64,000 nt of DNA, taken from contig NC_053112.1 in the NCBI RefSeq assembly GCF_010015445.1, positions 1,849,789 through 1,913,788 of the forward strand, read 5' to 3'. The notes beneath the pieces were generated by a model. It saw only the letters and a list, made by a program, of their open reading frames with translations. It did no database searches and was not told the DNA's origin. A program made the position numbers and the translations under genes. Shown here one piece after another: positions 38,676-64,000 of this stretch; the first letter of the stretch is position 1; each line of letters opens with the position of its first letter. Source of the stretch: Perca fluviatilis. Taxonomy: Eukaryota; Chordata; Actinopteri; Perciformes; Percidae.

Positions 38676-38910
<235 letters not shown>

Positions 38911-39929: not shown

Positions 39930-39934
39930 TGCAT

Positions 39935-39996
<62 letters not shown>

Positions 39997-40150
39997 GCAT
40001 TCATAAAACACACACACACACACACACACACCCACACACAAAACAAATATACACATATACACAGACACACATACACACACACATATACACACACACACAC
40101 CACGCACCGCGCACGCATACGCACACACACACTCACACACAAACACACAG
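39930..40150. repeat. (CA)n-rich microsatellite
   Basis: CA repeats with TACACA and GCACAC interruptions; the inverted partner of the GT run in the other arm. A shorter CA run is at 39736-39816. Confidence 0.95.
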
Positions 40151-40891: not shown

Positions 40892-41468
40892 TCTATTTAC
40901 ATGTATACATAGAGTCTATTTATTTCTATTTCTCACCGTTAATCACCGCAGAGCATCAACAGGGGTCACCACTGTTGTTTATGTGTGTGTGACGTTAAAA
41001 CCTGTAACTGGGATTACAACGATCTGCTACAAGGTCACGGGTAGTAACTTATGGGTTTAACGGTAACGGTTTGACAGCCGTTCCAGGGCACTTTCGCGAG
41101 TAGAAGGTTATGTAAACCGGGTTACGGGTTGCCTGGAACACAGCATATGTTTGAACTTACACATACGTCTTGCACCTTACCACGCACCACCAACCACAAC
41201 AACAACCCAGTGCAGATAGTTAGGCATTGTATTATCTCAAATGTCTTAAAATATATAGTGTATTTAGCCGCTGTAAACCGGGCCGAGCCCCAAATTTGTA
41301 CAATGTCTGGCTCCGCCCCGTGTGGATATATTCAGTGCTGTTTTGTCAGAGTAGCGAGCTTCACTGTGTTCCTTGTTGCTCACATTTTGGTGCAAGTCAA
41401 AACACCTTTTTAAATAATTAAAACTCTATTTTAATATGTTTTTCTTTTTATTCACACTATGTGTAGAT
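40892..41468 (+). other. Intron end and acceptor of TRIM copy 4
   Basis: Contains the gypsy empty site (ATGTAAACCGGGTTACGG, about 41112-41129) and the empty TTAA target (41246-41249). It ends in a pyrimidine-rich tract and TGTGTAG before the start codon. No gene is seen. Confidence 0.6.
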
Positions 41469-43113
41469 ATGGCGTGCGCAAACTATCTGTCATCTGAAGA
41501 TCAGTTTCTGTGCTCCATCTGTCTGGATGTGTTCACTGATCCTGTCACCATACTATGTGGTCACAACTTCTGCAAGAACTGCATCACTGAACACTGGGAT
41601 ACTAATGACCAGTACCTGTGTCCGATGTGTAACAAGGTTTTCAACACAAAACCTGAGCTGCACGTCAACACTTTGTTCTCTGAGATGGTTGCTCAGTTCA
41701 GACAGTCAGCTCAACAGAAAGCCAGCAGCAGCAGCTCAGAGAAACAAGTGTCGAAACCAGGAGAAGTTCCCTGTGACGTCTGCACTGGAACCAAACTGAA
41801 GGCCCTGAAGTCCTGTCTGGTGTGTCTGGTCTCCTACTGTGAGACTCACCTGGAGCCTCATCTGACCATGTCAGGTCTGAAAAGACATCAGCTGATCGAC
41901 CCTGTGGAGAACCTGGAAGGCAGGATGTGTACGGTGCACGATAAACCTCTGGAGCTGTTCTGTAAGACCGACCAGACATGTGTCTGCATGCTCTGCACTG
42001 TTTTAGAGCACAAGATGCATGATGTTGTTCCTCTGAAAGAAGAATATGAAGGAAAGAAGGCAGAGCTGGGGAAGACAGAGGCTGAAATTCAGCAGATGAT
42101 CCAGAAGAGACGACTGAAGATTCAGGAGATCAAACACTCAGTCGACCTCAGTGAGGAAGATGCAGACAGAGAGATAGCAGAAGGTGTTCAGGTCTTCACT
42201 TCTCTGAAGGAGTCTGTTGAGAGAGGCCTGAATGAGCTCATCAACACGATCAAAGAGAAGCAGAAAACAACAGAAAAACAGGCCGAAGCTTTCATCAAAG
42301 AGCTGGAACAGGAAATCTCTGAGCTGATGAAGAGAAGCACTGAGGTGGAGCAGGTGTTACGCTCTGAAGACCACCTCCATCTTCTCCAGAGTGTCCAGTC
42401 CCTAAACATCCAACAACCTCCACCCACCAAGGACTGGACAGAGGTCAGTGTCCATCCATCATCATATGAGGGGACTGTGGTGAAAGCTGTGGTTCAGCTG
42501 GAGGAGACACTCAGTACAGAGATAAAGAAGCTGCTTAAAGCCGAAGCTGAAGAGGGTCCAGCAGTATGCAGTGGATGTGACTCTTGATCCTGATACAGCA
42601 CATCCTAATCTCATCCTGTCTGATGATGGGAAACAAGTGTATGATAGTGATGTGAGGAAGAATCTCCCAGACAACCCAGAGAGATTTTCTAAGTGTGTTA
42701 ATGTTTTAGGAAAGCAGAGTTTCTCTTCAGGCAGATTTTACTTTGAGGTCCAAGTTAAAGGAAAGACTGAATGGGATTTAGGAGTGGCCAGAGAGTCGAT
42801 CAACAGGAAGGGAAACATCAACCTGAGCCCCGAAAGGTTACTGGATTATAGTGTTGAGAAATGGAAATGAGTACAAAGCTGCTAATGACCCTCCAGTCCT
42901 TCTCTCTCTGAAGTCTCCTCCTCAGAAGGTGGGGGTGTTTGTGGATTGTGAGGAGGGTCTGGTCTCCTTTTATGACGTAGATGCTGCAGCTCTTATCTAC
43001 TCCTTTACTGGCTGCTCCTTCACTGAGAAACTCTTCCCATACTTCAGTCCCAGTCTTAATTATGGTGGTAAAAACCTGCCCCTCTGATCATCTCTCCTGT
43101 CAGAGTAAACTAA
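41469..43113 (+). pseudogene. btr: Bloodthirsty-related TRIM E3 ligase, copy 4 (most intact)
   Basis: ATG at 41469-41471. The frame is open for 373 codons: RING (CSIC at about residue 17, LCGHNFCKNC, CPMC), B-box1-like (CDVC..CLVC..C..H), B-box2 (CTVHDKPLELFCK..C..C..H), and a coiled coil of about 140 residues rich in E/K/Q. The RING zinc ligands are all present. A single extra A near 42543 shifts the frame at the start of PRY. PRY and the first half of SPRY follow in the next frame to about 42865, the rest in a third frame to 43087. The family stop TAA is at 43111-43113. The three breaks are one or two bases each. It could encode a truncated RING-B-box-coiled-coil protein, or be intact in the animal if the indels are assembly errors. 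Confidence 0.88.
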
Positions 43114-44859
43114 TCACTTAACTTTGATTAATTTATTTTCATTCAGGGAAACAAATATTAATAATTAGTTTAGATCAGATTTTCTATATTTTTAATGTGA
43201 TTGATTTACACTTCATTGTTAAGATGTTTTAAATTATTTGTATTCTATTACATAGTCAACAAATTCATTTAATGCATTCATCTCTTCAACACTGCATCAG
43301 AATATCTATTTTTAAAAACCTCTGTTAAAGCCACAGACATTTATTTTAACTTCCAGAAGAAATCAGTTTCAAACGACATTTTCATTTAAGAGTAAGTCTG
43401 AATCCACAATAAATGCAGGTCTTTCCAAACATATTAATTGGGGGGTAGTGGGTTGCTGCAGGGGAGATGAAGAAAACGCTGTGATGAAAATTTTGAGACC
43501 GACTCAACTTTTGGAGAAACGCAACCCTGCGTCACGCTGCAGTGGCCAATCATGTAACAGAGATCAGAGTTGTCAGAGTGTTTTGAGGCGGTGTGAGAGT
43601 CCCGTACAGGAAACAGGAAACATCACTGCCTCTATCTCTGCCACGAGAACGTTTTAAAACTCCAAACACAGGCTGTGAACTGCCCGGGAGTTTGGGGAAC
43701 AGCTGACTGATTCCTCAGTCCCTCCATCAGTCCTTCTGATTGTTTCCTGCAACAACAAAGCACTCGCTATATCTCGCTCATCTCTTTTCTTTCTCTCTTT
43801 CTCCGGGAAATAAAGATGCCTTCAAGTTCAGTCGGAAATGTCGAGATCTATAGACCATCTGACAGAAAACAGTGAGTGTGAAATATAAAGTGTACTTGTG
43901 CTACATTGGGAAGTCACACAAACAGGCTGTTTCAGTGATACTCCCACCGCTGCACAACTCTGCCAAAAATCTGCGGATCACTTTCTTTGGTCTGAACTCA
44001 GCTTAAGGTCTATTACATGCCTATAGTGTCTACAGAACACAATATGTGTCGTCATTATACCGGTATAAAAACGGTTAATGAATGTTTCTATTTTGTCTGA
44101 AAAGTGTTTTGGTTCATTATTAGTCACTTTGGTTATTTTTGGTTTGTTTTGTGGGTAAGATGGTTTATAAGTCAAAGAAATCTGTAAATATGTGATTGTA
44201 AAATGAAAACTGTAAAATAAACCAGTTGTTGAACACAAAGCCTGAGTAAACAGTGACTTGAGCACCAAACACTGAACAGAAAAGCTGGTTTACAAAGAAG
44301 TTGTATTTCATGATGAGTACATTGTGTTTCCTGTGGCTGCTTCACAATAAAAGCTCCTGTGTGTATCACCAGTTGGATGCTTTTAATGTGAAGGAGCGGC
44401 AGGAGGAAATGTTTGTTTCACCCAGCAGTGATTGTGGAGGATAAATCGGTCTCTCCTTTTTTTTTTTTCTTAGCGCTCGTTTTAAAAATATCTATATATG
44501 TATATATCAGAAATCTGGGTTTGTTTTTTATTTAATTTTTTATTTCAATGTTAAACAATTCAAGAAACCACAAGTGATACAAGACAAACAGTCACATAAA
44601 GAAAAAAAAAAAAAAAAAAAAAAATAAGAGTAAAGTGGGTTTTTTTTAACTATATAATTGGATTTACCCAAAAATAACACGGATGGATGATTCCATACAA
44701 CGGCTTGGCGTAAAACACAGAAGATCGGATCTCTACTTTCATTGAATTTGGGGTGTTTATTAAATATTTTAGCATTTGAATTTTTTTTAAATGTTTCTAA
44801 ACAGTATCCTCACTTAACGCGTTGACATATACCAGTCTGTGATTATCCTTCCTTTAATA
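43114..44859 (+). other. Downstream block of TRIM copy 4
   Basis: AATAAA at 43408-43413. Homologous to 30.57-32.31 kb, ending abruptly at CTTCCTTTAATA, where an L1-type fragment starts. No gene is seen. Confidence 0.6.
44341..44393. repeat. Conserved fold-back motif, copy 4
   Basis: TTCACAATAAAAGC ... GCTTTTAATGTGAA, the direct counterpart of 31794. Confidence 0.75.
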
Positions 44860-46564: not shown

Positions 46565-47338
46565 GCAGCTGGAGGAAATGTAATGTGTTCAAGTAGCTGT
46601 GCTGTTCTTTTGATAAAACTTGGACACAGGAGCTTTATTAGGCTCGTTCTAGAGCCATACCGTGTACCATATTCTGTATGTTTACCATTGCACATTAACC
46701 TAGCAGCTGACGGATATTCATTCTGCTTATAGCTTTATCCCAACAAAACCGCACGGTTGAATTTTAGCCGCATGCACGCTTTGTAGCCTAAACAGAGCAG
46801 CTCATATTGGTTATATTAGAGAGAACAACAATTTAGCCGGACTGCCCGAAGTGGCGCCCTATTTGCTATCGTTCTGCTCAGCTGCTGTGCTGGCTCGATG
46901 GTGTTTTAAGCCCCAACCAAGCCTTCAAGGTAGCCGCCGACCGTCGTCTTCAACCATAACCATAGTCTAAAAATGGCATAGCAACCTATGCTTAAAAAAA
47001 GAAGTAAAGATCGAATCGAATTGTGACCTTAGAATCAAAAATGTAATCGAATCGAGGGATTTGGAGAATCGTTGACACCCCTAAGTAGTACACACTCATA
47101 TGTGTATTGTTTTGATTACAATGTGCGGAATTACTTTTACGTTGCTTATTTATGTCTATTTATTTCTATTTCTCACCGTTAAGCACCCGTGCAGCATCAA
47201 CAAGGGGGCACACTGTTGTTTATGTGTGTGTGGCGTTAAAACCTGTAACTGGGACTACAAACGATCTGCTACGAGGTCACGGATAGTAACTTATGGGTTT
47301 ACGGTAACACTTGCGAGTAGAAGGTTATGTAAACGACG
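46565..47338. other. Intron of TRIM copy 5, 5' part
   Basis: Matches 37.63-38.09 and 40.91-41.11 kb without the piggyBac-type element. No gene is seen. Confidence 0.55.
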
Positions 47339-47861
47339 TGTGACAAGCCCAGGGGTGTGGGTGTCCGCTCACCAGTTCAAGAAGATAAGCCGGCACCAGG
47401 AGTACAGTTGGAAAACAGTTGAAAAGTTTATTGCAGACAATCAGGGGAATTTCCACAACACTTCACCATCTACTGCTGCAATGTCCATAATCCATTCACG
47501 TTGTCTTTAATCCACAGGTCATCCACAAACGGGTCCTCGTCCAGAACAGTTCGGTACACAGGGGGTAGTCAGCCAGTCCAGGTCACAGCTCTTAATCACA
47601 CAGTTTTAGTTCAGTTCACTCCTCAGTAATTTCCACCCTGTCTCACTCAGCTCCCCTCCTTTTTCTCTCTGCTCCTTTTGTTCCCAGTTCAAACCTGCTT
47701 TCCTCTTTTCCCTCCAAAACCCCAATCACCTAATTAATCCCAGCCTCTCCTTGTTGGAAGAGGAAGTCCATAAAAGGCTCCGGGGGTGGAACCAGCCAAC
47801 CGCCAATATACCTCCCGCTTCCGATCACCACTCCCCTCACCTCTCCCTGCAATCTACCACA
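47339..47861 (-). repeat. Gypsy LTR 1 (3' outer LTR)
   Basis: TGTGACAAGC ... CTACCACA on the plus strand. It differs from the other three LTRs at several sites (for example AATCAGG for AATGAGG, ACAGTTGG for ACAGCTGG). The minus strand has AATAAA near the LTR end. Confidence 0.9.
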
Positions 47862-49260
47862 CACCCCCTCAGCTCCGACCTGGAGGGAGGTGCGGTCCAG
47901 CACCCCAGAGCATCCCGCCTGGATAGGGCATTGGCATTCCCATGGGCGCCCCGGACCTGTGGACGACAGAGAAAGCAAAGGGCTGTAAAGACAGAAACCA
48001 GCGAGTAACCGAGCATTACTGTCCTTATTCCGAGACATCCAAACCAGTGGCGCATGGTCCGTAACAAGGGTGAAGTGCCGTCCCAGCACGTAATATTTCA
48101 GTTTCTCAAGGGCCCACTTGATGGCAAGACATTCCTTCTCCACTGTGGAATATCGTTGTTCTCGTGGTAATAGCTTCCGGCTGATGTACAAGATGGGGTG
48201 TTCCTCACCGTCTTTCAACTTGTGATAGGACAGCACCAACCCCAGTTTCAGATGCATCTGTCTGTACAACCAGTGGCTTGGAGAAGTCCGGGGTCGTGAG
48301 TATGGGTCCAGAACACAGCTCCCTTTGGGTCGTGAAAGGCTTTCTCAGTCTCCTCGGTCCACACCACCTGGTTGGGCTGGCAGCTCTTTGTTAGATCTGT
48401 TAGGGGGCCGGCTAGAAAAGCAAAATGTGGAATGAATCTTCGATAGTAACTGGTTAAACCTACAAACGTGCGTACCTGCTTCTTCGTGAGGGGCCGGGGC
48501 CAGTCCCGAATCGCCTCCACTTTCTTCACCTGGGGTTTGACACAACCCCTCCCAATCGTGTAACCCAGGTACTCCGCCTCTACGGAACCGAGCCGACATT
48601 TTTGGGGTTAGCTGTGAGCCCGGCCTCCCTTAAGGCCTGTAGAACCGAGCTCACCTGGTGCAGATGGAACTCCCAATCACTTCCATGGATGACAATATCG
48701 TCGAGGTAAGCCGCCGCATACTCCTGATGGGGGACGGAGAACTCGGTCCATCAACCTCTGGAAGGTAGCTGGGGCCCCATGTAACCCAAAGGGCAGCTTC
48801 TTGTAGTGGAACAGCCCATCAGGGGTGGCAAACGCTGTTTTCTCCGCTTCAAGGGCCAAAGGCACCTGCCAATAGCCCTTTGTGAGGTCAAGCGTGCTGA
48901 TAAAGCAGGCTGTCCCTAGCCTCTCAATCAGTTCGTCAATTCGGGGCATGGGGTAGGCGTCGAATTTGGAGATTTCATTAACCTTTCTGAAGTCGTTACA
49001 GAAACGAGTCGTCCATCTGTTTTTTGGTACCAACACTATGGGGCTACACCACTCGGCTGTTGGACTCTTCTATGATATCCGCTTCCAGCATAATTTTCAC
49101 CTCGGTCCTAACAGCCTCTCTTCTTGCTTCCGGTATGCGGTAGGGTCTCAACTTCACCTTTCTCCGGGTTCAGTGATTATGTTGTGCTCTACCAGATCAG
49201 TTGTCCTGGTACACTGGAAAACACATCCGACTCTGGTCGACAACTCCATTAGCTCTTGCC
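47862..49260 (-). pseudogene. Gypsy RT-RNase H, array member 1
   Basis: RT is seen as CNDFRKVNEISKFDAYPMPR, TLDLTKGYWQVPLA, KLPFGLHGAPATFQRLMDRV and the YLDD box (48697-48708). RNase H follows with YISRKLLPREQRYSTVEKE, CLAIKWALEKL and VTDHAPLVWM. The polymerase makes cDNA from element RNA, and RNase H removes the RNA. This member keeps the RT finger segment missing in members 2 and 3. Frameshifts lie near 48735, 48600, 48290 and 47970. Confidence 0.88.
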
Positions 49261-49272
49261 TCTGTACTGAGC

Positions 49273-50602
49273 TCAGCTGATCTCCCATTGGCACTGCTGC
49301 GAGCTTGGTCCCTGCCGTGGCCTTCCTTGGGGCAAAAGAATAGAGTACATGTAAAACTTACATTCTGAAGTGGGGATCAACACCAACACTTTGTCCCCTG
49401 GCTGGAAGTCTCTTGGTTGTGCTCCTCTGTTGTACACCCGAGATTGGGCCTCCCGCATATGTTCCCGTACCAGGGGCCACAGGGTTGTCATACGGCCTCT
49501 CATGTCTTCCACGTGTTCCACCATGGTGCGATGGGGCGATGGTTGCTGTTCCCAAGCCTCCTTCGCCACGTCCAGCAGTCCTCGGGGTCGTCTTCCATAC
49601 AGGAGTTCAAAGGGAGAGAACCCTGTGGAAGCTTGGGGCACTTCCCGGATCGAGAACATCAGGTAAGGTAGTAGCTGGTCCCAATTCCTTCCGTCCGCCT
49701 CCATTACCTTCTTTAGCATCTGCTTCAGCGTTCGATTGAATCTCTCTACCAGCCCGTCTGTCTGTGGGTGATACACTGAAGTACGTAACTGGGTTATCTT
49801 CATTAGTTTGCAGAGATCCTTCATAATTCGGGACATGAATGGGGTTCCTTGGTCAGTTAATATTTCATCAGGGATTCCCACTCGGAAAACAGCATCACCA
49901 ACTTACGTGCTATCCCCTTGGTAGCCATGGTGCACAGGGGAATGGCCTCCGGCTACCTGGTGACGTAATCCAGAATCACCAGGATATATTGGTGTCCTCG
50001 GTTTGCTCTTGGGTAAAGGTCCCACCAGGTCCATGGCGATCCTGCTGAAAGGGACTGAAATGATAGGCAGGGGAACGAAGGGACTGCGTAAATGTGGCTT
50101 TGGCGCCACCATCTGACACTCCGGGCAACTGGCAGTAATCCTCCACGGCTCTCTTCACCCCCGGCCAGTAGAATCGGGCTTTGATCCGGTCTAGGGTCTT
50201 CTCCACCCCTAGATGAGCACCAAGAAGGTGGGGTGTGCCAACTGCAAGACATGTTGTACAAAGGTACGGGCACCAAACAACTCCACACATTCCCCATTTT
50301 CCTTCACAACCTGATACAATAATTTCTTCTTTATTGCAAAATGGGGATAGGTGATATGACTTAACCCCTCCATGGGTTTGCCGTCCACCACAGTAACCTG
50401 CTGGAGTGCATGGGCCAGGTTGGGGTCTTCTAATTGGGCTGTGCGAACCGGCCTGCCAGAGAGGCAGGGTCTGGCTCCACCTCCGGGTCCATCGAAACGT
50501 AGCGTTCAGAATTGCCTCCCCTTCCTCCTGACTTGCTTCTCCTGATTCACCCTCCGCGAGGGGCTCCTGTTGATACCTGGGGGTCCACTTCCCGAAACCC
50601 AC
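49273..50602 (-). pseudogene. Gypsy integrase, array member 1
   Basis: The zinc-binding H-H-C-C part (LGAHLGVEKTLDRIKARFYW then KRAVEDYC) is followed by the core: first Asp in IAMDLVGPLP, second Asp in TDQGTPF, and Glu in GLVERFN exactly 35 residues after it (D,D35E). The core C-terminal frame of 202 codons (49881-49273) is open. Breaks lie near 49890-49960 and 50140. It inserts cDNA into the host genome. Confidence 0.88.
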
Positions 50603-50846
50603 ACATCCGGGCTTTCACTTTCCGGGAGTCTGTCCCGCCCTTCCGGCTTCCTCTCTTCTACATCCCCATAAATACTGGCCCATAGTGGGTGGAACATAGG
50701 GCAATCCCTCCCAATGAGGACCGGCGAACAAATTCGGGACGATTCCCACTGGCCCCGTACTCTGCCCTTTTGTGGTCTGTAGGTGAAGAAGTGTGGTAGG
50801 GTAGTCTTTGGTCTCACCGGTATGCCCATGATGGGTACAGTGTCAG

Positions 50847-51968
50847 TCAGGGAGGAGGAGACTGGGCGAATTCAGGTCTGATCAGGGTCGCCATACTCCC
50901 TGAGTCCACAAGTGCCGTGGTGTCCTTTCCGTTGGCTCTTACCCGGGTGACCGGGAAGGGCCGCTCTCCGCCAGCCGCGTACGTCCAGCAAGTTGCAGGG
51001 CCGGCCCTACGGCCACCTCGCTGGCTGAGGCGGTAGGCATCGAGACAGCGGTTTGGACACAGGCAATGTGTCCGGGCTCCCCACACTTGTAGCACTTCCT
51101 GCCGTCCAGATTCAGAAAAGCTGTTGTCTCTGGGAGCAGGGTGTGGGTGTTCCCCCTCTCGTTAGCCAGCCGTCCGGCGTGATCCTCTGTCCTTTTTCTC
51201 TCCTTCTGACGAAGGGAGGGTTCGCTTCCGTGTTTGTCCACTGCGTAGAACCTCCAAAGCTACCTGTTGTCCTTCCACTAGTTCCACTAGCTGATCTGCG
51301 CTCTGAGGGTTAGCTTGGCTTGCTAACTTTTTAGCTTCAAACGGTAGAGCGTAGGAATTTATCTATGACCATGTTTTCAATGGGAGTGAGCGTCAGTGGC
51401 TCAGCCGTTAGCCAGCTCTTGGCCAGTCTGATCAGATCATGCATTTGGGCCCGGGGGGTGCTGTGGCATCATACGTCCAATCGTGGAATCTTTGTGCCCT
51501 GCTAATGAGATTAAATCCATAACGGCGCAGGATTTCTTTCTTCAGCACGTCGTAATTTGTCGCCTGGTCAACAGCCAGATCTAGATATGTCCTTTGTGCA
51601 GAGCCTGACAGGAACGGAGCTAGCAGGCTGGCCCATTGCTCAGGTGGCCATTCCTCCCTAGCTGCTGTTCTCCGAAGGCTTGGAGGTAAGCTTCAATATC
51701 GTCTTTTTCGGTCAGTTTTAATATAAACAGGGTTCGTTTGGGACTTGAGACAGTCGGGCCAGCAGCCCTTCCGGCCTGGGCGGCTGTCAACTGGCTGAGT
51801 TCAGCTCGCAGGAGAGAAGTCTGGTGACGTTGTTCCTCCATCAGCTCTCGATGCATAGCTTGCTGTGCTAGGGTTCGACTCCACCGACTGTTGTACCAGC
51901 GCTTCCATTGTACTCGGTGACACGGTGCGGTGCTGAGTCCGGTCAGGTTGCCCGCATTCTCCACCATA
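50847..51968 (-). pseudogene. Gypsy gag-protease, array member 1
   Basis: Gag begins at or next to the primer site (MVENAGNLTGL) and includes a Gln/Leu-rich helical part (MHRELMEEQRHQTSLLRAEL). The zinc knuckle CYKCGEPGHIAC at 51059-51094 has all four ligands. An aspartic protease follows with ALVDSGS (DSG at 50898-50906). Frameshifts separate gag, knuckle and protease. Confidence 0.85.
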
Positions 51969-52481
51969 TGTGGCACGCCCACGTGGGTGTCCACGTCACC
52001 AGTTCAAGAAGATAAGCCGGCACCAGGAGTACAGCTGGAAAACAGTTGAAAAGTTTATTGCAGACAATGAGGGGAATTTCCACAACACTTCACCATCTAC
52101 TGCTGCAATGTCCATAATCCATTCACGTTGTCTTTAATCCACAGGTCATCCACAAACGGGTCCTCATCCAGAACAGTTCGGTACACAGGGGGTAGTCAGC
52201 CAGTCCAGGTCACAGCTCTTAATCACACAGTTTTAGTTCAGTTCACTCCTCAGTAATTTCCACCCTGTCTCACTCAGCTCCCCTCCTTTTTCTCTCTGCT
52301 CCTTTTGTTCCCAGTTCAAACCTGCTTTCCTCTTTTCCCTCCAAAACCCCAATCACCTAATTAATCCCAGCCTCTCCTTGTTGGAAGAGGAAGTCCATAA
52401 AAGGCTCGGGGGGTGGAGCCAACGGGCCGCAATATACCTCCCTTCGATCACCACTCCCCTCACTCCCTGCAATCTACCACA
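51969..52481 (-). repeat. Gypsy LTR 2 (shared between members 1 and 2)
   Basis: TGTGGCACGC ... CTACCACA. One LTR serves as the 5' LTR of member 1 and the 3' LTR of member 2. Confidence 0.92.
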
Positions 52482-53822
52482 CACCCCTCAGCTCCGACCT
52501 GGAGGGAGGTGCGGTCCAGCACCCCAGAGCATCCCGCCTGGATAGGGCATTGGCATTCCCATGGGCCGCCCCGGACCTGTGGACAACAGAGAAAGCAAAG
52601 GGCTGTAAAGACAGAAACCAGCGAGTGACCCGAGCATTACTGTCCTTATTCCGGGACATCCAAACCAGTGGCGCATGGTCCGTAACCAGGGTGAAGTGCC
52701 GTCCCAGCACGTAATATTTCAGTTTCTCAAGGGCCCACTTGATGGCAAGACATTCCTTCTCCACTGTGGAATATCGTTGTTCTCGTGGTAATAGCTTCCG
52801 GCTGATGTAGAAGATGGGGTGTTCCTCACCGTCTTTCAACTGTGATAGGACAGCACCAACCCCAGTTTCAGATGCATCTGTCTGTACAACCAGTGGCTTG
52901 GAGAAGTCCGGGGTGTGCAGTATGGGTCCAGAACACAGCGCTCCCTTCAGGTCGTGAAAGGCTTTCTCAGTCTCCTCGGTCCACACCACCTGGTTGGGCT
53001 GGCAGCTCTTTGTTAGATCTGTTAGGGGGCCGGCTAGAGAAGCAAAATGTGGAATGAATCTTCGATAGTAACTGGTTAAACCTACAACGTGGTATTCGTG
53101 TTCTTCGTGAGGGGCCGGGGCCAGTCCCGAATCGCCTCCACTTTCTTCACCTGGGGTTTGACACAACCCCTCCCAATCGTGTAACCCAGGTACTCCGCCT
53201 CGCGAGACCGAACCGACATTTTGTGGGGTTAGCTGTGAGCCCGGCCTCCCTTAAGGCCTGTAGAACCGAGCTCACCTGGTGCAGATGGACCTCCCAATCA
53301 CTTCCATGGATGACAATATCGTCGAGGTAAGCCGCCACATACTCCTGATGGGGACGGAGAACTCGGTCCATCAACCTCTGGAAGGTAGCTGGGGCCCCAT
53401 GTAACCCAAAGGGCAGCTTCTTGTAGTGGAACAGCCCATCAGGGGTGGCAAACGCTGTTTTCCTCACGGCCAAGGGCCAAAGGCACCTGCCAATAGCCCT
53501 TTGTGAGGTCAAGCGTGCTGATAAAGCAGGCTGTCCCTAGCCTCTCAATCAGTTCGGTCAATTCGGGGCTACACCACTCGCTGTTGGACTCTTCTATGAT
53601 ATCCGCTTCCAGCATAATTTTCACCTCGGTCCTAACAGCCTCTCTTCTTGCTTCCGGTATGCGGTAGGGTCTCAACTTCACCTTTCTCCCGGGTTCAGTG
53701 ATTATGTTGTGCTCTACGGGAAAAGGGTTGTCGTGTTTACCGGAAAACACATCCCGACTCTGGTCGACCAACTCCATTAGCTCTTGCCTCTGTACTGAGC
53801 TCAGCTGATCTCCCATTGGCAC
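52482..53822 (-). pseudogene. Gypsy RT-RNase H, array member 2 (finger segment deleted)
   Basis: RT starts EVKIMLEADIIEESNSEWCS and then jumps to ELIERLGTACFISTLDLTKG. About 95 bases present in member 1 are gone at about 53563, with GGGGC on both sides of the deleted part. YLDD codons are at 53318-53329. RNase H (VQTDASETGVGAVLSQ to VTDHAPLVWM) is well kept in one frame of 230 codons (53166-52474). It cannot make a normal RT. Confidence 0.88.
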
Positions 53823-55159
53823 TGCTGCGAGCTTGGTCCCTGCCGTGGCCTTGCGGGCAAAAGAATAGAGTACATGTAAAAATTACATTCTGAAGTGGGG
53901 ATCAACACCAACACTTTGTCCCCTGGCTGGAAGTCTCTTGGTTGTGCTCCTCTGTTGTACACCCGAGATTGGGCCTCCTGGGCCTCCTGCATATGTTCCC
54001 GTACCAGGGGCCACAGGGTTGTCATACGGCCTCTCATGTCTTCCACGTGTTCCACCATGGTGCGATGGGGCGATGGTTGCTGTTCCCAAGCCTCCTTCGC
54101 CACGTCCAGCAGTCCTCGGGGTCGTCTTCCATACAGGAGTTCAAAGGGAGAGAACCCTGTGGAAGCTTGGGGCACTTCCCGGATTGAGAACATCAGGTAA
54201 GGTAGTAGCTGGTCCCAATTCCTTCTGTCCGCCTCCATTACCTTCTTTAGCATCTGCTTCAGCGTTCGATTGAATCTCTCTACCAGCCCGTCTGTCTGTG
54301 GGTGATACACTGAAGTACGTAACTGGGTTATCTTCATTAGTTTGCAGAGATCCTTCATAATTCGGGACATGAATGGGGTTCCTTGGTCAGTTAATATTTC
54401 ATCAGAGATTCCCACTCGGGAAAAACAGCATCACCAACTTACGTGCTATCCCCTTGGTAGCCATGGTGCACAGGGGAATGGCCTCCGGCTACCTGGTGAC
54501 GTAATCCAGAATCACCAGGATATATTGGTGTCCTCGGTTGCTCTTGGGTAAAGGTCCCACCAGGTCCATGGCGATCCTGCTGAAAGGGACTGAAATGATA
54601 GGCAGGGGGAACCAAGGGACCGCGTAAATGTGGCTTTGGGCCACCATCTGACACCGCGGGCAACTGCGGCAGTAATCCTCCACGCTCTCTTCACCCCCGG
54701 CCAGTAGAATCGGGCTTTGATCCGGTCTAGGGTCTTCTCCACCCCTAGATGAGCACCAAGAAGGTGGGAGTGTGCCAACTGCAAGACATGTTGTACAAAG
54801 GTACGGGGCACCAATAACAACTCCACACATTCCCCATTTTCCTTCACAACCTGATACAATAATTTCTTCTTTATTGCAAAATGGGGATAGGTGATATGAC
54901 TTAACCCCTCCATGGGTTTGCCGTCCACCACAGTAACCTGCTGGAGTGCATGGGCCAGGTTGGGGTCTTCTAATTGGGCTGTGCCGAACCGGCCTGCCAG
55001 AGAGGCAGGGTCTGGCTCCACCTCCGGGTCCATCGGAAACATGTCGTTCAGACTTGCCTCCCCTTCCTCCTGACTTGCTTCTCCTGATTCACCCTCCGAG
55101 GGGGCTCCTGTTGATACCTGGGGGTCCACTTCCTGAAACCCACACATCCGGGCTTTCAC
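53801..55159 (-). pseudogene. Gypsy integrase, array member 2
   Basis: The core frame of 204 codons (54415-53801) holds TDQGTPF and GLVERFN with 35-residue spacing. The zinc-binding part lies at 55159-54512 in a frame with breaks. Relative to member 1 it has QEAQEAQS, three extra residues, near the C-terminal domain; member 3 shares this. Confidence 0.88.
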
Positions 55160-55388
55160 TTTCCGGGAGTCTGTCCCGCCCTTCCGGCTTCCTCTCTTCT
55201 ACATCCCCATAAATACTGGCCCATAGTGGGTGGAACATAGGGCAATCCCTCCCAATGAGGACCGGCACGGGCAAATTCGGGACGCATTCCCACTGGCCCC
55301 GTACTCTGCCCCTTTTGTGGTCTGTAGGTGAAGAAGTGTGGTAGGGTAGTCTTTGGTCTCACCGTGTATGCACATGATGGGTACAGTG

Positions 55389-56506
55389 TCAGTCAGGGAG
55401 GGGAGACTGGGCGATTTCAGGTCTGATCAGGGTCGCCATACTCCCTGAGTCCACAAGTGCCGTGGTGTCCTTTCCGTTGGCTCTTACCGGGGTGACCGGG
55501 GAAGGGCCGCTCTCCGCAGCCCAGCACGTCGTCAGCAAGTTGCAGGGCCGTCCCACGGCCACCTCGCTGGCTGAGGCCGTAGGCATCGGACACATTGTAA
55601 TGATCCGGGCTCCCCACACTTGTAGCACTTCCTGCCGTCCAGATTCAGAAAAGGCTGTTGTCTCTGGGAGCAGGCTGTGGGTGTTCCCCTCTCGTTAGCC
55701 AGCCGTCCGGGCGTGATCCTCTGTCCTTTTTCTCCTCTTCTGACGCAGGGAGGGTTCGTTCTTCCGGTGTTTGTCCACTGCGTAAGAACCTCCAAAGCTA
55801 CCTGTTGTCCTTCCACTAGTTCCACTAGCTGATCTGCGCTCTGAGGGTTAGCTTGGCTTGCTAACTTTTTAGCTTCAAACGGTAGAGCGTAGGGAATTTA
55901 TCTATGACCATGTTTTCAATGGGAGTGAGCGTCAGTGGCTCAGCCGTTAGCCAGCTCTTGGCCAGTCTGATCAGATCATGCATTTGGGGGCCGGGGGTGC
56001 TGTGGCATCATACGTCCAATCGTGGAATCTTTGTGCCCTGCTAATGAGATTAAATCCATAACGGCGCAGGATTTCTTTCTTCAGCACGTCGTAATTTGTC
56101 GCCCTAGTCAACAGCCAGATCTAGATATGTCCTTTGTGCAGAGCCTGACAGGAACGGAGCTAGCAGGCTGGCCCATTGCTCAGGTGGCCATTCCTCCCTA
56201 GCTGCTGTTCTCGAAGGCTTGGAGGTAAGCTTCAATATCGTCTTTTTCGGTCAGTTTTAATATAAACAGACTCGGTTTGGGACTTGAGACAGTCGGGCCA
56301 GCAGCCCTTCCGGCCTGGGCGGCTGTCAACTGGCTGAGTTCAGCTCGCAGGAGAGAAGTCTGGTGACGTTGTTCCTCCATCAGCTCTCGATGCATAGCTT
56401 GCTGTGCTAGGTTCGACTCCACCGACTGTTGTACCAGCGCTTCCATTGTACTCGGTGACACGGTGCGGTGCTGAGTCCGGTCAGGTTGCCCGCATTCTCC
56501 ACCATA
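55389..56506 (-). pseudogene. Gypsy gag-protease, array member 2
   Basis: Gag as in member 1 (56506-56198 is open). The zinc knuckle reads CYKCGEPGSLQC, so the His ligand is lost through a small indel (about 55595). Protease DSG is at 55443-55451. Confidence 0.83.
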
Positions 56507-57022
56507 TGTGGCCACGTCCACGTGGGTGTCCACGTCACCAGTTCAAGAAGATAAGCCGGCACCAGGAGTACAGCTGGAAAACAGTTGAAAAGTTTATTGC
56601 AGACAATGAGGGGAATTTCCACAACACTTCACCATCTACTGCTGCAATGTCCATAATCCATTCACGTTGTCTTTAATCCACAGGTCATCCACAAACGGGT
56701 CCTCATCCAGAACAGTTCGGTACACAGGGGGTAGTCAGCCAGTCCAGGTCACAGCTCTTAATCACACAGTTTTAGTTCAGTTCACTCCTCAGTAATTTCC
56801 ACCCTGTCTCACTCAGCTCCCCTCCTTTTTCTCTCTGCTCCTTTTGTTCCCAGTTCAAACCTGCTTTCCTCTTTTCCCTCCAAAACCCCAATCACCTAAT
56901 TAATCCCAGCCTCTCCTTGTTGGAAGAGGAAGTCCATAAAAGGCTCGGGGGGGGGGCCAACGGGCCGCAATATACCTCCCTTCGATCACCACTCCCCTCA
57001 CCTCTCCCTGCAATCTACCACA
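56507..57022 (-). repeat. Gypsy LTR 3 (shared between members 2 and 3)
   Basis: TGTGGCCACG ... CTACCACA, very close to LTR 2. Confidence 0.92.
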
Positions 57023-58330
57023 CACCCCCTCAGCTCCGACCTGGAGGGAGGTGCGGTCCAGCACCCCAGAGCATCCCGCCTGAATAGGGCATTGGCCTTC
57101 CATGGGCGGCCCCGGGACCTGTGGACAACAGAGAAAGCAAAGGGCTGTAAAGACAGAAACCAGCGAGTGACCCGAGCATTACTGTCCTTATTCCGGAGAC
57201 ATCCAAACCAGTGGCGCATGGTCCGTAACAAGGGTGAAGTGCCGTCCCAGCACGTAATATTTCAGTTTCTCAAGGGCCCACTTGATGGCAAGACATTCCT
57301 TCTCCACTGTGGAATATCGTTTGTCGTGGTAATAGCTTCCGGCTGATGTACAAGATGGGGTGTTCCTCACCGTCTTTCAACTGTGATAGGACAGCACCAA
57401 CCCCAGTTTCAGATGCATCTGTCTGTACAACCAGTGGCTTGGAGAGTCCGGGTCGCGAGTATGGGTCCAGAACACAGCGCTCCCTTCAGGTCGTGAAAGG
57501 CTTTCTCAGTCTCCTCGGTCCACACCACCTGGTTGGGCTGGCAGCTCTTTGTTAGATCTGTTAGGGGGCCGGCTAGAGAAGCAAAATGTGGAATGAATCT
57601 TCGATAGTAACTGGTTAAACCTACAAACGTTGCGACCTGCTTCTTCGTGAGGGGCCGGGGCCAGTCCCGAATCGCCTCCACTTTCTTCACCTGGGGTTTG
57701 ACACAACCCCTCCCAATCGTGTAACCCAGGTACTCCGCCTCTCGCAGACCGAGCCGACATTTTGTGGGGTTAGCTGTGAGCCCGGCCTCCCTTAAGGCCT
57801 GTAGAACCGAGCTCACCTGGTGCAGATGGACCTCCCACTCACTTCCATGGATGACGATATCGTCGAGGTAAGCCGCCACATACTCCTGATGGGGACGGAG
57901 AACTCGGTCCATCAACCTCTGGAAGGTAGCTGGGGCCCCATGTAACCCAAAGGGCAGCTTCTTGTAGTGGAACAGCCCATCGGGGGGTGGCAAACGCTGT
58001 TTTCTCCGCCTAAGGGCCAAAGGCACCTGCCAATAGCCCTTTGTGAGGTCAAACGTGCTGATAAAGCAGGCTGTCCCTAGCCTCTCAATCAGTTCGTCAA
58101 TTGGGCGGGGGGCTAACACCACTCGCTGTTGGACTCTTCTATGATATCCGCTTCCAGCATAATTTTCACCTCGGTCCTAACAGCCTCTCTTCTTGCTTCC
58201 GCGTAGGGTCTCAACTTCACCTTTCTCCGGGTTCAGTGATTATGTTGTGCTCTACCAGATCAGTGTGTCCTGGTTCACTGGAAAACACATCCCGACTCTG
58301 GTCGAACAACTCCATTAGCTCTTGCCTCTG
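57023..58330 (-). pseudogene. Gypsy RT-RNase H, array member 3 (finger segment deleted)
   Basis: Carries the same RT deletion as member 2 (joint at about 58105). From LIERLGTACFISTFDLTKG through YLDD (57859-57870) the frame is open to about 57440. RNase H follows in broken frames. Confidence 0.86.
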
Positions 58331-58338
58331 TACTGAGC

Positions 58339-59707
58339 TCAGCTGATCTCCCATTGGCACTGCTGCGAGCTTGGTCCCTGCCGTGGCCTTCCTTGGGGCA
58401 AAAGAATAGAGTACATGTAAAAATTACATTCTGAAGTGGGGATCAACACCAACACTTTGTCCCCGGGCTGGAAGTCTCTTGGTTGTGCTCCTCTGTTGTA
58501 CACCGGGATTGGGCCTCCTGGGCCTCCTGCATATGTTCCCGTACCAGGGGCCACAGGGTTGTCATATGGCCTCTCATGTCTTCCACATGCTCCACCATGG
58601 TGCGATGGGGCGATGGTTGCTGTTCCCAAGCCTCCCTCGCACGTCCCAGCAGTCCTCGGGGTCGTCTTCCATACAGGAGTTCAAAGGGAGAGAACACTGT
58701 GGAAGCTTGGGGCACTTCCCGGATTGAGAACATCAGGTAAGGTAGTAGCTGGTCCCAATTCCTTCTGTCCGCCTCCATTACCTTCTTTAGCATCTGCTTC
58801 AGCGTTCGATTGAATCTCCTACCAGCCCGTCTGTCTGTGGGTGATACACTGAAGTACGTAACTGGGTTATCTTCATTAGTTTGCAGAGATCCTTCATAAT
58901 TCGGAACATGAATGGGGTTCCTTGGTCAGTTAATATTTCATCAGAGATTCCCACTCGGGAAAACAGCATCACCAACTTACGTGCATATCCCCTTGGTAGC
59001 CATGGTGCACAGGGGAATGGCCTCCGCTACCCTGGTGACGTAATCCAGAATCACCAGGATATATTGGTTATGTCCTCGGTTGCTCTTGGGTAAAGGTCCC
59101 ACCAGGTCCATGGCGATCCTGCTGAAAGGGACTGAAATGATAGGCAGGGGAACCGAGGGACCGCGTAAATGTGGCTTTGGCGCCACCATCTGACACTCCG
59201 GGCAACTGCCGGCAGTAATCCTCCACGGCTCTCTTCACCCCCGGCCAGTAGAATCGGGCTTTGATCCGGTCTAGGGTCTTCTCCACCCCTAGATGAGCAC
59301 CAAGAAGGTGGGAGTGTGCCAACTGCAAGACATGTTGTACAAAGGTACGGGGCACCAATAAACAACACCACACATTCCCCCATTTTCCTTCAAAACCTGA
59401 TACAATAATTTCTTCTTTATTGCAAAATGGGGATAGGTGGTATGACTTAACCCTCCTCATGGGTTTGCCGTCCACCACAGTAAACCTGCTGGAGTGCATG
59501 GGCCAGGTTGGGGTCTTCTAATTGGGCTGTGCCGAACCGGCCTGCCAGAGAGGCAGGGTCTGGCTCCACCTCCGGGCCCATCGGAAACATGTCGTTCAGA
59601 CTTGCCTCCCCTTCCTCCTGACTTGCTTCTCCTGATTCACCCTCCGAGGGGGCTCCTGTTGATACCTGGGGGTCCACTTCCTGAAACCCACACATCCGGG
59701 CTTTCAC
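58339..59707 (-). pseudogene. Gypsy integrase, array member 3
   Basis: Zinc-binding part at about 59400-59200 (LGAHLGVEKTLDRIKARFYW), core at about 59130-58440. A base loss near 58819 removes the frame around VERFNRT, so the core is split. The C-terminal part runs to 58339. Confidence 0.84.
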
Positions 59708-61048
59708 TTTCCGGGAGTCTGTCCCGCCCTTCCGGCTTCCTCTCTTCTACATCCCCATAAATACTGGCCCATAGTGGGTGGAACATAGGGCAATCCCTCC
59801 CAATGAGGACCCACGGGCAAATCGGACGCGATTCCCACTGGCCCCGCAACTGCCCTTTGTGGTCTGTAGGTGTTGAAGTGTGGTAGTAGAAAATGGTAGT
59901 CTTTGGTCTCACCGTGTATGCACATGATGGGTACAGTGTCAGTCAGGGGAGGAGACTGGGCGATTTCAGGTCTGATCAGGGTCGCCATACTCCCTGAGTC
60001 CACAAGTGCCGTGGTGTCCTTTCCTCTCCGCTGGCGTTACGGGTGGACGGGGCAGGGGGGGCTCTCCGCGCAGCCCAGCGTACGTCCAGCAAGTTGCAGG
60101 GCCGTCCTACGGCCACCTCGCTGGCTGAGGCCGTGAGGCATCGGACATTGTGTCCGGGCCCCCCACACTTGTAGCACTTCCTGCCGTCCAGATTCAGAAA
60201 AGGCTGTTGTCTCTGGGAGCAGGCTGTGGGTGTTCCCCTCTGCGCAGCCGTCGTCGCGTGATCCTCTTCCTTTTCTTCCTTCTGACGCAGGGGAGGGTTC
60301 GTTCTTCGGTGTTTGTCCACTGCGTAGAACCTCCAAAGCTACCTGTTGTCCTTCCACTAGTTCCACTAGCTGATCCGCGCTCTGAGGGTTAGCTTGGCTT
60401 GCTTACTTTTTAGCGTTAGAACGCGTGAGGGAAAATTTATCTATGACCATGTTTTCAATGGGGTTGGTGCGCGCCAGGCTCAGCCGTTAGCCAGCTCTTG
60501 GCCAGTCTGATCAGATCATGCATTTGGGGCCGGGGGTGCTGTGGCCATCATACGTCCAATCGTGGAATCTTTGTGCCCTGCTAATGAGATTAAATCCATA
60601 ACGGCGCAGGAGGTTTTCTTCTTCAGCACGTCGTAATTTGTCGCCTAGTCAACAGCCAGATCTAGATATGTCCTTTGTGCAGAGCCTGACAGGAACGGAG
60701 CTAGCAGGCTGGCCCATTGCTCAGGTGGCCCCTCCCCTAGCTGCTGTTCTCTCTAAGCCTGGAGAAGCTTCAATATCGTCTTTTTCGGTCGTTTTATATA
60801 TAAACAGACTCGGTTTTGGGACTTGAGACAGTCGGGCCAGCAGCCCTTCCGCCTGGGCGGCTGTCAACTGGCTGAAGTTCAGCTCGCAGGAGAGAAGTGC
60901 GGGGGACGTTGTTCCTCCATCAGCTCTCGATGCATAGCTTGCTGTGCTAGGTTCGACTCCACCGAACTGTTGTACCAGCGCTTCCATTGTACTCGGTGAC
61001 CGGTGCGGGGAGTCCGGTGCGGTCAGGTTGCCCGCATTCTCCACCATA
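59704..61048 (-). pseudogene. Gypsy gag-protease, array member 3
   Basis: Gag is in broken frames (61048-60721). The zinc knuckle CYKCGGPGHNVRC at 60138-60176 keeps its ligands with changed spacing. Protease DSG is at 59992-60000. This member has the most indels. Confidence 0.82.
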
Positions 61049-61558
61049 TGGGACGCGTCCACGTGGGTGTCCACGTCACCAGTTCAAGAAGATAAGCCGG
61101 CACCAGGAGTACAGCTGGAAAACAGTTGAAAAGTTTATTGCAGACAATGAGGGGAATTTCCACAACACTTCACCATCTACTGCTGCAATGTCCATAATCC
61201 ATTCACGTTGTCTTTAATCCACAGGTCATCCACAAACGGGTCCTCATCCAGAACAGTTCGGTATTGTCAGCCAGTCACGAGGTCACAGCTCTTAATCACA
61301 CAGTTTTAGTTCAGTTCACTCCTCAGTAATTTCCACCCTGTCTCACCTAGCTCCCCTCCTTTTTCTCTCTGCTCCTTTTGTTCCCAGTTCAAACCTGCTT
61401 TCCTCTTTTCCCCTCCAAAACCCCAATCACCTAATTAATCCCAGCCTCTCCTTGTTGGAAGAGGAAGTCTAATAAAAGGCTCGGGGTGGCGCCAACGGGC
61501 CGCCATAATATACCTCCTCTTCGATCACCACTCCCCACCTCTCCCGCATTCTACCACA
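61049..61558 (-). repeat. Gypsy LTR 4 (5' outer LTR)
   Basis: TGGGACGCGT ... CTACCACA; the primer site lies just inside it. AATAAA on the minus strand at 61134-61139. It lacks a short piece near 61265 that the others have. Confidence 0.9.
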
Positions 61559-61914
61559 ACGGGTTACGGTTGCCTAGGAACACAGCGCATATGTTTGAAC
61601 TTACATAATGCCTTCTGCAACTACCACGCACCACCAACCACAACAACAACCCAGTGCAGATAGTTAGGCATTGTATTATCTCAAATGTCTTAAAATATAT
61701 AGTGTATTTAGCCGCTGTAAACCGGGCTGAGCCCCAAATTTGTGCAATGTCTGGCTCCCGCCTCTGTGTGATATATTCAGTGCTGTTTTGTCAGAGTAGC
61801 GGAGCTTCACTGTGTTCCTTGTTGCTCACATTTTGGTGCAAGTCAAAACACCATTTTTGAATAATTAAAACTCTATTTTAATATGTTTTCTTTTTATTCA
61901 CACTATGTGTAGAT
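61559..61914 (+). other. Intron end and acceptor of TRIM copy 5
   Basis: Matches 41.12-41.47 kb. Empty TTAA target at 61690-61693. It ends in the conserved acceptor before the start codon. Confidence 0.6.
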
Positions 61915-63559
61915 ATGGCTGCTGCAAACTATCTGCCATCTGAAGATCAGTTTCTGTGCTCCATCTGTCTGGATGTGTTTACTAATCCTGTCACCACATC
62001 ATGTGGACACAACTTCGCCAAAACTGCATCAATGAACACTGGAATACTAATGACCAGTTCCTGTGTCCGATGTGAACAAGGTTTTCAACACAAAACCTGA
62101 GCTGCATGTCAACACTTTCATCTCTGAGATGGTTGCGTTGTTCCAGACACGTCAACTCAACAGAAAGCCAGCAGCAGCAGCTCAGAGCAACAAGTGTCCA
62201 AACCAGGAGAAGTTCCCTTGACGTCTGCACTGGAACCAAACTGAAGGCCCTGAAGTCCTGCCTGGTGTGTCTGGTCTCCTACTGCGAGACTCACCTGGCG
62301 CCTAATCTGACAACGTCACGTCTGAAAAGACATCAGCTAATTGACCCTGTGGAGAACCTGGAAGGCAGGATGTGTACGGAGCACGATAAACCTCTGGAGC
62401 TGTTCTGTAAGACCGACCAGACATGTGTCTGCATGCTCTGCACTGTTTTAGACCACAAGATGCATGATGTTGTTCCTCTGAGAAAAGGATATGAAGGAAA
62501 GAAGGCAGAGCTGGGGAAGACAGAGGCTGAAATTCAGCAGATGATCCAGAAGAGACGACTGAAGATTCGAGGAGGTCAAACTCTCAGTCAACCTCAGTGA
62601 GGAAGATGCAGACAGAGAGATAGCAGAAGGTGTTCAGGTCTTCACTTCTCTGAAGGAGTCTGTTTGAGAGGCCTGAATGAGCTCATCAACATGATCAAAG
62701 AGAAGCAGAAAGCAACAGAAAAACAGGCCGAAGTCTTCATGCAAGAGCTGGAACAGGAAATCTCTGAGCTGATGAAGAGAAGCACTGAGGTGGAGCAGCT
62801 CTCACGCTCTGAAGACCACCTCTATCTTCTGCAGAGTGTCCAGTCCCTAAACATCCAACAACGTCCACCCACCAAGGACTGGACAGGGGTCCGTGTCCAG
62901 TTCCCCATTATATGAGGGTACTGTGGTGAGAGCTGTGGCTCAGCTGGAGGAGACACTCAGTAAAGAGATCAAGAAGCTGCTTGATGCCGAGCTGAAGAGG
63001 GTCCAGCAGTATGCAGTGGATGTGACTCTTGATCCTGATACAGCATATCCTAATCTCATCCTGTCTGATGATGGGAAACAAGTGAATCACTGGGCAGTGA
63101 GGGGAGGAAACTCCCAGACAACCCAGAGAGATTTTCTTATTGTGTTTGTGTTTTAGGAAAGCAGAGTCTCTCTTCAGGCACATTTTACTTTGAGGTTCAA
63201 GTTAAAGGAAAGACTGATTGGGATTTAGGAGTGGTCAGAGAGTCGATCAACAGGAAGGGACACATCACAGTGAGCCCTCAGAAAGGTTACTGGATTATAG
63301 TGTTGAGAAATGGAAATGAGTACAAAGCTGCTGCTGGCCCTTCAGTCCTCTCTCTGAAGTCTCCTCCTCAGAAGGTGGGGGTGTTTGTGGATTGGGAGGA
63401 GGGTCTGGTCTCCTTTTATGACGTAGATGCTGCGGCTCTTATCTACTCCTTTACTGGCTGCTCCTTCACTGAGAAACTTTTCCCAGTCTTTGGTCCCGGT
63501 CTTAATTCTGGTGGTAAAACTCTGCCCCTCTGATTATCTCTCCTGTCAGAGTAAACTAG
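61915..63559 (+). pseudogene. btr: Bloodthirsty-related TRIM E3 ligase, copy 5 (many frameshifts)
   Basis: ATG at 61915. The RING begins well (SEDQFLCSICLDVF) but loses frame near 62017, inside the central Cys-His cluster. Other breaks lie near 62075, 62150, 62215, 62575, 62665, 62905, 63110 and 63340-63525. B-box1-like to coiled-coil start (62220-62570), coiled coil (62664-62890), PRY (LDPDTAYPNLILS) and SPRY (WDLGVVRES, KVGVFVDWEEGLVSFY) are all recognisable in order. The family stop TAA is TAG here (63557-63559). It is the most damaged copy. Confidence 0.85.
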
Positions 63560-64000
63560 TCACTTAACTTTGATTTATTTATTTTCATTCAGGGTAACAA
63601 ATGTTAATAATTAGTTTAGATCTGATTTTCTATCTTTTAATGTGGTGATTGATGTACACTTAATTGTTAAGATTTTTTAAATTATATGTATTCCATTACA
63701 TAGTCAACAAATTAATTGAATGCATTCATCTCTTCAACACTGCATCAGAATATCTATTTTTAAAAACCTCTGTTAGATCCACAGACATTTATTTTAACTT
63801 CCAGAAGAAATCGGTTTCAAAAGACACCTTCATTTAAGAGTAAGTCTGCATCCACATAAATGCAGGTCTTTCCAAACATATTAATTGGGGGTAGTGGGTT
63901 GCCACAGGGGAAGATGGAATAAAAACACAGCGGTGAAAAATTTTTGGAGACCGACTCAACTTTTGGAGAAACGCAACCCCGCGCCACGCGCGGTGGCCAA
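63560..64000 (+). other. Downstream block of TRIM copy 5
   Basis: Same 3' flank as the other copies. The AATAAA present in copies 1-4 reads CATAAA here (about 63855). The window ends inside this block. Confidence 0.6.

What the first reader, a model, noticed from the sequence alone, without database searches (positions are those of the whole stretch)
47339..61558. Tandem gypsy array in which neighbours share LTRs
The structure is LTR-internal-LTR-internal-LTR-internal-LTR in one orientation. A normal insertion has two LTRs. Sharing of LTRs points to unequal recombination between LTRs of sister copies, or to collapse or expansion in assembly. The flank matches a clean empty site in TRIM copy 4, so the array came from one insertion event at one target followed by growth in place.
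Basis: partly seen in the sequence, partly recalled or inferred. Interest (0 to 1): 0.75.

Follow-up and report, generated by a model that had tools for sequence, protein, structure and literature searches.

The report
Three-unit tandem retrotransposon in perch
In the European perch, one old jumping element beside an immune gene seems to have been copied head-to-tail where it sat, giving three units that share their end repeats; this kind of structure is already known from plants and kangaroos, but here shared mutations hint at the order in which it grew.

Summary
Observation confirmed: window 47339-61558 reads LTR1-INT1-LTR2-INT2-LTR3-INT3-LTR4, one element, one orientation (coding strand minus). 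Host: Perca fluviatilis. The element is a low-copy Ty3/gypsy retrotransposon with integrase upstream of reverse transcriptase (Gmr1-type order). All three units have broken frames and lack the same stretch of the integrase C-terminus that the three informative other copies keep wholly or partly; this points to one founder. The flanks close on an empty site beside TRIM copy 4 with a 5-bp net gain, but the expected duplicate does not match cleanly. With other perch copies as outgroups, LTR2+3+4 share four derived changes absent from LTR1, and INT2+INT3 share a deletion of about 93 bp plus eight substitutions absent from INT1. That nesting fits stepwise growth in place by recombination after insertion. 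Cautions: assembly reads (ONT, N50 11.9 kb) are shorter than the 14.2-kb array, so the number three is unproven; the last third of INT3 and most of LTR4 carry too many private changes for their age, probably consensus error, so LTR1-LTR4 divergence is not a clock. Tandem LTR retrotransposons with shared LTRs are already described: a new member of a known kind.

The parts
47339..47861 (-). LTR1, the element's 3' LTR and left edge of the array; keeps the ancestral state at the four characters shared by LTR2-4
47862..51968 (-). INT1, internal region 1 (4107 bp); keeps the ~93-bp segment lost in INT2 and INT3
   Evidence: RT, RNase H, integrase and CCHC matches
48936..49031 (-). segment of INT1 aligned to a gap in INT2 and, but for 9 bases, in INT3; C6 and C20 align through it without a break
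51969..52481 (-). LTR2, shared by units 1 and 2
52482..56506 (-). INT2, internal region 2 (4025 bp)
56507..57022 (-). LTR3, shared by units 2 and 3
57023..61048 (-). INT3, internal region 3 (4026 bp)
59809..61048 (-). last third of INT3 with excess private change (7.5 per 100 columns against 1.7 in the rest); probably low-quality consensus
61049..61558 (-). LTR4, the element's 5' LTR and right edge of the array; most of its right part also has excess private change
47140..47338 (.). left flank of the insertion, matching TRIM copy 4 at 40914-41067 (from 47154 on)
61559..64000 (.). right flank with TRIM copy 5; a percid TRIM protein matches from 61915, about 360 bp from the array
40900..41260 (.). 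paralogous empty site beside TRIM copy 4

Best explanation
A single Gmr1-type gypsy retrotransposon, already lacking part of its integrase C-terminus, inserted about 360 bp from the start of a TRIM gene copy in the perch lineage. After insertion its two LTRs and the duplicated units drifted. Homologous recombination out of register, by unequal exchange or repair between LTRs or units of sister chromatids or homologues, then added units in place: first LTR1-INT1-LTRx-INTb-LTR4, then a second round that duplicated the INTb unit into INT2 and INT3. Shown: the array, the empty site, the shared integrase loss, and the nested shared changes (INT2+INT3; LTR2+3+4). Inferred: that exchange occurred through the LTRs, the two-step order, and that exactly three units exist. 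A crossover near LTR columns 204-222 is only suggested.
For: Structure and boundaries. Empty site with 5-bp net gain. All three units lack a ~132-bp integrase C-terminal stretch kept in C6 and C20; a 43-aa probe of it finds C6 (43 aa), C20 (43 aa) and C23 (30 aa), and in the whole window only one chance-level match outside the array. LTR2+3+4 share a 4-bp deletion (0 of 7 outgroup LTRs have it), two substitutions (0 of 7) and one more (1 of 7), all in LTR columns 15-204; no substitution is shared by LTR1+2+3 alone. INT2+INT3 against INT1=C6: 11 candidate substitutions, 8 of 11 held on recheck with C6, C20, C23 or C12, plus the ~93-bp deletion. LTR2-LTR3 differ at 2 of 512 sites, fewer than INT1-INT2 would predict, p 1e-4. 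Substitutions between units are flat over codon positions, 20/24/25 and 29/40/38, as for decay in place. The family is low-copy: the gag piece finds one other copy at 94% and older or partial ones, so many near-identical copies confusing the assembler are less likely.
Against: No reads seen; read N50 11.9 kb against a 14.2-kb array, and the gap-closing and polishing steps could leave errors here. Target duplication not clean. Conflicting characters: 4 INT1+INT2 sites (3 rechecked, 1 held), 6 INT1+INT3 sites in one 7-bp clump (not rechecked), an LTR column where LTR3+4 alone share a derived state, one where LTR1 and LTR4 share a state, one where LTR2 and LTR4 differ from the outgroup. No change is shared by LTR1 with the inner LTRs, so the LTR1 half of the predicted chimera is unproven. 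The LTR tree does not hold all four array LTRs together: LTR1 joins C20/C6 at support 0.72, and the gag tree puts INT3 with INT1 at 0.59. INT3's last third and LTR4 are not clock-like.
Confidence: 0.7

Rival explanations
1. Assembly artefact: the locus holds a normal two-LTR element or a different number of units, and the assembler or gap closer walked through the repeat, adding copies built from noisy reads, alleles or another family member.
For: ONT R9.4 reads with N50 11.9 kb, reads over 9999 bp assembled with SmartDeNovo, then LR_Gapcloser and short-read polishing (passages). Differences in the array are more clumped than in 11 control paralogous pairs of the window (internal-region ratio 2.1-2.8 against 1.3-2.2) and lie nearer to gaps (0.41-0.45 against 0.16-0.36). 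INT3's last third has 98 private substitutions against 14 and 14 in INT1 and INT2 over the same pieces.
Against: Each unit has its own differences along its length (53, 49 and 147 private substitution columns). Gap density in INT pairs (11.3-13.2 per kb) lies inside the control range of 4.8-20.0. Random error would not give INT2+INT3 the same deletion and 8 rechecked substitutions, nor LTR2+3+4 the same deletion. The C6 copy lacks the array-specific integrase loss, so it was not simply copied in. Two adjacent units with LTRs (about 9.6 kb) fit within reads of the length used.
Confidence: 0.16
2. The tandem formed during or by retrotransposition: a multimeric cDNA was inserted as such, or new cDNA of the same element recombined into the LTR of the resident copy, as reported for yeast Ty5.
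For: Both routes are named in PMC11899658 (passages and section 3), whose authors could not choose between insertion as a tandem and later recombination from flanking SNPs. Array anatomy is the same under each route.
Against: Insertion as a finished tandem starts all LTRs and units equal; the nested sharing then needs later exchange anyway. cDNA recombination needs a donor with the same integrase loss, seen in none of C6, C20, C23. Flat codon positions give no sign of change accumulated in an active lineage.
Confidence: 0.11
3. Two or more independent insertions recombined or were nested.
For: LTR1 lies slightly nearer to C20 and C6 (3.1-3.5%) than to LTR4 (7.1%).
Against: No intervening flank, one pair of flanks at one empty site, and all units share the integrase loss. 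LTR4's distance is inflated by its private changes.
Confidence: 0.03

Closest known systems
Tandem LTR retrotransposons of plants (TLI1, TLI2, IDENTAM set; PMC11899658, abstract, passages and sections 3 and 8 seen)
   Same: Alternating LTRs and internal regions, inner LTRs shared, single flanking insertion site, mostly gypsy.
   Different: Fish host; three units rather than the two of TLI1 and TLI2; target duplication not clean; no read support available here; shared mutations allow an ordering of units.
Kangaroo endogenous retrovirus megasatellite (KERV, Koga et al. 2023; seen only as a reference entry and as described in PMC11899658)
   Same: Vertebrate LTR element in head-to-tail units with provirus structure kept; LTR recombination proposed.
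   Different: KERV arrays are centromeric; this is a short array beside a TRIM gene.
Gmr1-type Ty3/gypsy elements (Goodwin and Poulter 2002, seen only as a reference entry; described in passages of PMC8220671 and PMC3587641)
   Same: Gypsy-type RT and RNase H with integrase upstream of RT; present in fish.
   Different: Units of about 4.5 kb plus one LTR, shorter than the 6.1-6.5 kb Gmr consensus lengths listed for pufferfish relatives in PMC11117352; integrase C-terminal stretch lost.
Ty5 LTR-mediated tandem elements in yeast (Ke and Voytas 1997, seen only as a reference entry)
   Same: Tandem elements formed through LTR homology.
   Different: That route uses new cDNA; here the shared changes fit chromosomal growth better.

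Membership tests
Tandem LTR retrotransposon array | Two or more internal regions alternating with LTRs in one orientation, inner LTRs shared | tested here: met
Tandem LTR retrotransposon array | One insertion site with target duplication around the whole array | tested here: inconclusive
   empty site and 5-bp net gain found, duplicate copies do not match
Tandem LTR retrotransposon array | Confirmed by reads spanning array and flanks | not testable with these tools
   no reads held; published read N50 11.9 kb
Ty3/gypsy superfamily | Gypsy-type RT (RVT_1) and RNase H (RT_RNaseH) with retroviral-type integrase | tested here: met
   RVT_1 in 3 of 3 units; RT_RNaseH in units 1 and 2, only a weak partial RT_RNaseH_2 in unit 3; integrase zinc domain in 3 of 3; integrase core matches in 3 of 3 but below Pfam's cut-off
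Gmr1 clade | Integrase upstream of reverse transcriptase | tested here: met
   order CCHC, integrase zinc, integrase core, RT on the minus strand in 3 of 3 units, RNase H next in units 1 and 2; the CCHC match in unit 2 is weak (E 0.021)
Gmr1 clade | Clusters with Gmr1 elements in an RT or integrase tree | not tested
   no tree with named Gmr1 elements was built
Satellite or megasatellite DNA | Long array of many monomers | tested here: not met
   three units only

The most novel reading that the evidence does not exclude
The array is an incipient, still length-variable LTR megasatellite inside a TRIM immune gene cluster: perch haplotypes carry different numbers of units, the order of growth is written in nested shared mutations, and the same out-of-register exchange could also change TRIM copy number beside it.
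Probability: 0.12. Interest if true: 0.6.

Novelty: new member of a known kind. Interest (0 to 1): 0.4.

Why it matters
Tandem LTR elements with shared LTRs are considered a possible first step towards satellite DNA, and the rice study could not tell from flanking SNPs whether they grow in place or are inserted ready-made. A case with a paralogous empty site, few other family copies and nested shared mutations can be used to test the order of growth. It is also a warning that base-level consensus error in repeats can imitate great age.

Tried and rejected
Old edges, young core: the first count gave 39 private events in the outer LTRs against 3 in the inner ones, and INT3's last third looked old. 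Outgroups changed this. At least 4 of LTR1's 15 'private' events are ancestral states lost by LTR2-4. INT3's last third has 72 private substitutions where both outgroups side with the majority, against 11 and 10 for INT1 and INT2 in the same piece, which equal age cannot give. I therefore dropped LTR1-LTR4 divergence as a clock. The first pairwise LTR1-LTR4 count (47 mismatches) was inflated by alignment; the four-row alignment gives 34 of 504.

Indel excess as a mark of error: blastn output suggested it, but MAFFT with 11 control pairs put gap density inside the control range; only clumping and nearness to gaps are raised.

Crossover inside the LTR: a change-point test gave p 0.009 on events and 0.047 on clumps; after polarisation, Fisher p 0.0007 for shared against LTR4-only changes left and right of column about 210. 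The second test leans on LTR4's suspect right part, so I call it a hint only.

Different source subfamilies: codon positions are flat when pooled; RNase H of INT2 against INT1 alone leans to third positions (5/6/13), and frames are broken, so this test is weak.

Outgroup choice: of 32 LTR matches (a lower bound by the tool's own note), 4 are the array; I used 7 of the other 28, those full-length at 84% or more; C22 (partial) was fetched but left out, C23 (72%) was left out of the LTR alignment. LTR column 9 was set aside because outgroups disagree.

A genome search with a pol piece did not complete, so the count of internal copies rests on the gag piece alone. Rfam gave no match. Paper searches for a teleost or percid case (listings of 20, 10 and 10) showed none; that is not proof of absence from print.
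Full report
Where it is. The window is contig C1 positions 1849789-1913788 of a 951,185,382-base genome in 297 contigs. C1 is 48,724,115 bases long, the same as the contig length given for Perca fluviatilis TRIM proteins, and a published P. fluviatilis assembly has a total length of 951,362,726 (PMC11209984, passages). The host is therefore European perch. The surroundings are a cluster of TRIM gene copies: Pfam finds RING, B-box, TRIM coiled-coil and PRY domains in the two ORFs scanned, and the nearest proteins listed are percid TRIM21- and TRIM39-like proteins at 84-94% identity among the percid rows.

What is there. Four LTRs and three internal regions alternate in one orientation over 47339-61558. 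The coding strand is minus. On that strand the order is CCHC zinc knuckle, integrase zinc domain, integrase core and reverse transcriptase in 3 of 3 units, with RNase H next in units 1 and 2; unit 3 gave only a weak partial RNase H match in the ORFs scanned. The integrase core, the aspartyl protease (unit 2) and some CCHC matches are below Pfam's cut-offs. Integrase upstream of RT with gypsy-type RT is the mark of Gmr1-type elements (passages of PMC8220671 and PMC3587641). Beside each inner LTR the sequence on the 5' side resembles a primer-binding site for tRNA-Ala, by recollection and not tested. Every unit is split into several ORFs.

One insertion. The left flank matches 40914-41067 at 91% and the right flank matches 41118-43549 at 92%. 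Joined, they align to the copy beside TRIM 4 with 5 extra bases at the junction. A 5-bp target duplication would give that, but the two copies do not match, 3 of 5 at the best offset. A percid TRIM protein begins to match at 61915, about 360 bp to the right of the array. All three units lack the same stretch of about 132 bp at the integrase C-terminus. C6 and C20 keep it and C23 keeps part of it; a 43-aa probe found nothing of it in the window beyond one chance-level match outside the array. A shared loss is expected if all units descend from one founder.

Order of growth. LTR1 and 7 other genomic LTRs served as comparison (C20, two of C6, C16, C18, C1 at 13.42 Mb, C12). LTR2, LTR3 and LTR4 share a 4-bp deletion and substitutions at alignment columns 19, 72 and 204. 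None of the 7 outgroups has the first three; 1 of 7 has the last. Among polarised substitutions, 19 are LTR4-only, 8 LTR1-only, 4 shared by LTR2-4 (one of them column 9, later set aside), 2 by LTR3+4, and single sites give LTR1+3+4, LTR2+4 and LTR3 alone; none is shared by LTR1+2+3. In the internal regions, against C6, INT2+INT3 share 11 substitutions, INT1+INT2 share 4 and INT1+INT3 share 6, the last all within one 7-bp clump. On recheck with more outgroups 8 of the 11 held, and 1 of 3 rechecked INT1+INT2 sites held. INT2 and INT3 also lack about 93 bp that INT1, C6 and C20 have. So unit 1 stands apart and units 2 and 3 are sisters. LTR2 and LTR3 differ at 2 of 512 sites on the four-row alignment and by 1.0% on the 11-row one. 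The simplest account is a one-unit insertion that became two units and then three in place.

Results against this reading. The gene trees are weak: FastTree joins LTR1 to C20/C6 at 0.72 and LTR2-4 together at 0.92, and the gag tree puts INT3 with INT1 at 0.59 because of INT3's long branch. The prediction that inner LTRs are chimeras, left part from LTR4 and right part from LTR1, is met on the left only; no change marks an LTR1 origin on the right. Homologous recombination of units in place is better supported than any exact crossover point.

Sequence quality. INT3 changes behaviour at about 59809: 1.7 private substitutions per 100 columns before, 7.5 after. In a 1-kb piece there, 72 INT3-private substitutions have both outgroups siding with the majority, against 11 in INT1 and 10 in INT2; over the last two pieces the counts against C6 are 98, 14 and 14. 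Units of one array cannot differ so much in age. The published assembly used ONT R9.4 reads with N50 11.9 kb, SmartDeNovo, Racon, Pilon, LR_Gapcloser and a freebayes step (passages), so residual error in a repeat is likely. Each of the five TRIM copies also matches a percid TRIM protein in two or more frames, which fits pseudogenes or error. Differences in the array are more clumped and closer to gaps than in 11 control pairs, while gap density is ordinary.

What is known. Tandem LTR elements with shared LTRs have been described in rice and other plants, with 266 tandems in a pangenome of 76 rice accessions; kangaroo centromeres and Drosophila are named as further cases (PMC11899658: abstract, passages, sections 3 and 8). 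The authors weigh recombination between LTRs against insertion of tandem structures and leave the choice open. The perch array belongs to this kind. Searches for a fish case showed none, without proving that none is in print. What it adds is an old enough case, with outgroup copies and an empty site, in which nested shared changes favour growth in place.

Noticed in passing
window 1-2088, 13889-15969, 28860-31013, 41118-43549, 61560-64000: Five TRIM gene copies in both orientations; a percid TRIM protein matches each in two or more frames, so all five look broken or mis-sequenced.
   Followed up: partly
window 16605-18340, 2539-2893, 28123-28400: A 46-bp minisatellite, 37.6 copies in the longest array, with smaller arrays beside other TRIM copies in the opposite or same orientation.
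   Followed up: no
window 38123-38970 and 39838-40699: An inverted repeat of about 0.85 kb at 87% identity with long TG/CA runs, inserted between the two halves of the TRIM-4 left flank.
   Followed up: no
G000 C19:3913510-3995080: Nine partial matches to the LTR within about 82 kb, 73-80% identical: perhaps an old cluster of the same family.
   Followed up: no
G000 C6:2727761-2733111 (L005, L006, L021, L022): An ordinary two-LTR copy of the same family, LTRs 1.0% apart, sitting in an AT repeat.
   Followed up: partly
window 59809-61558: Excess private change in INT3's last third and LTR4, with a quiet stretch in LTR4's left 205 bp between two bad stretches.
   Followed up: partly
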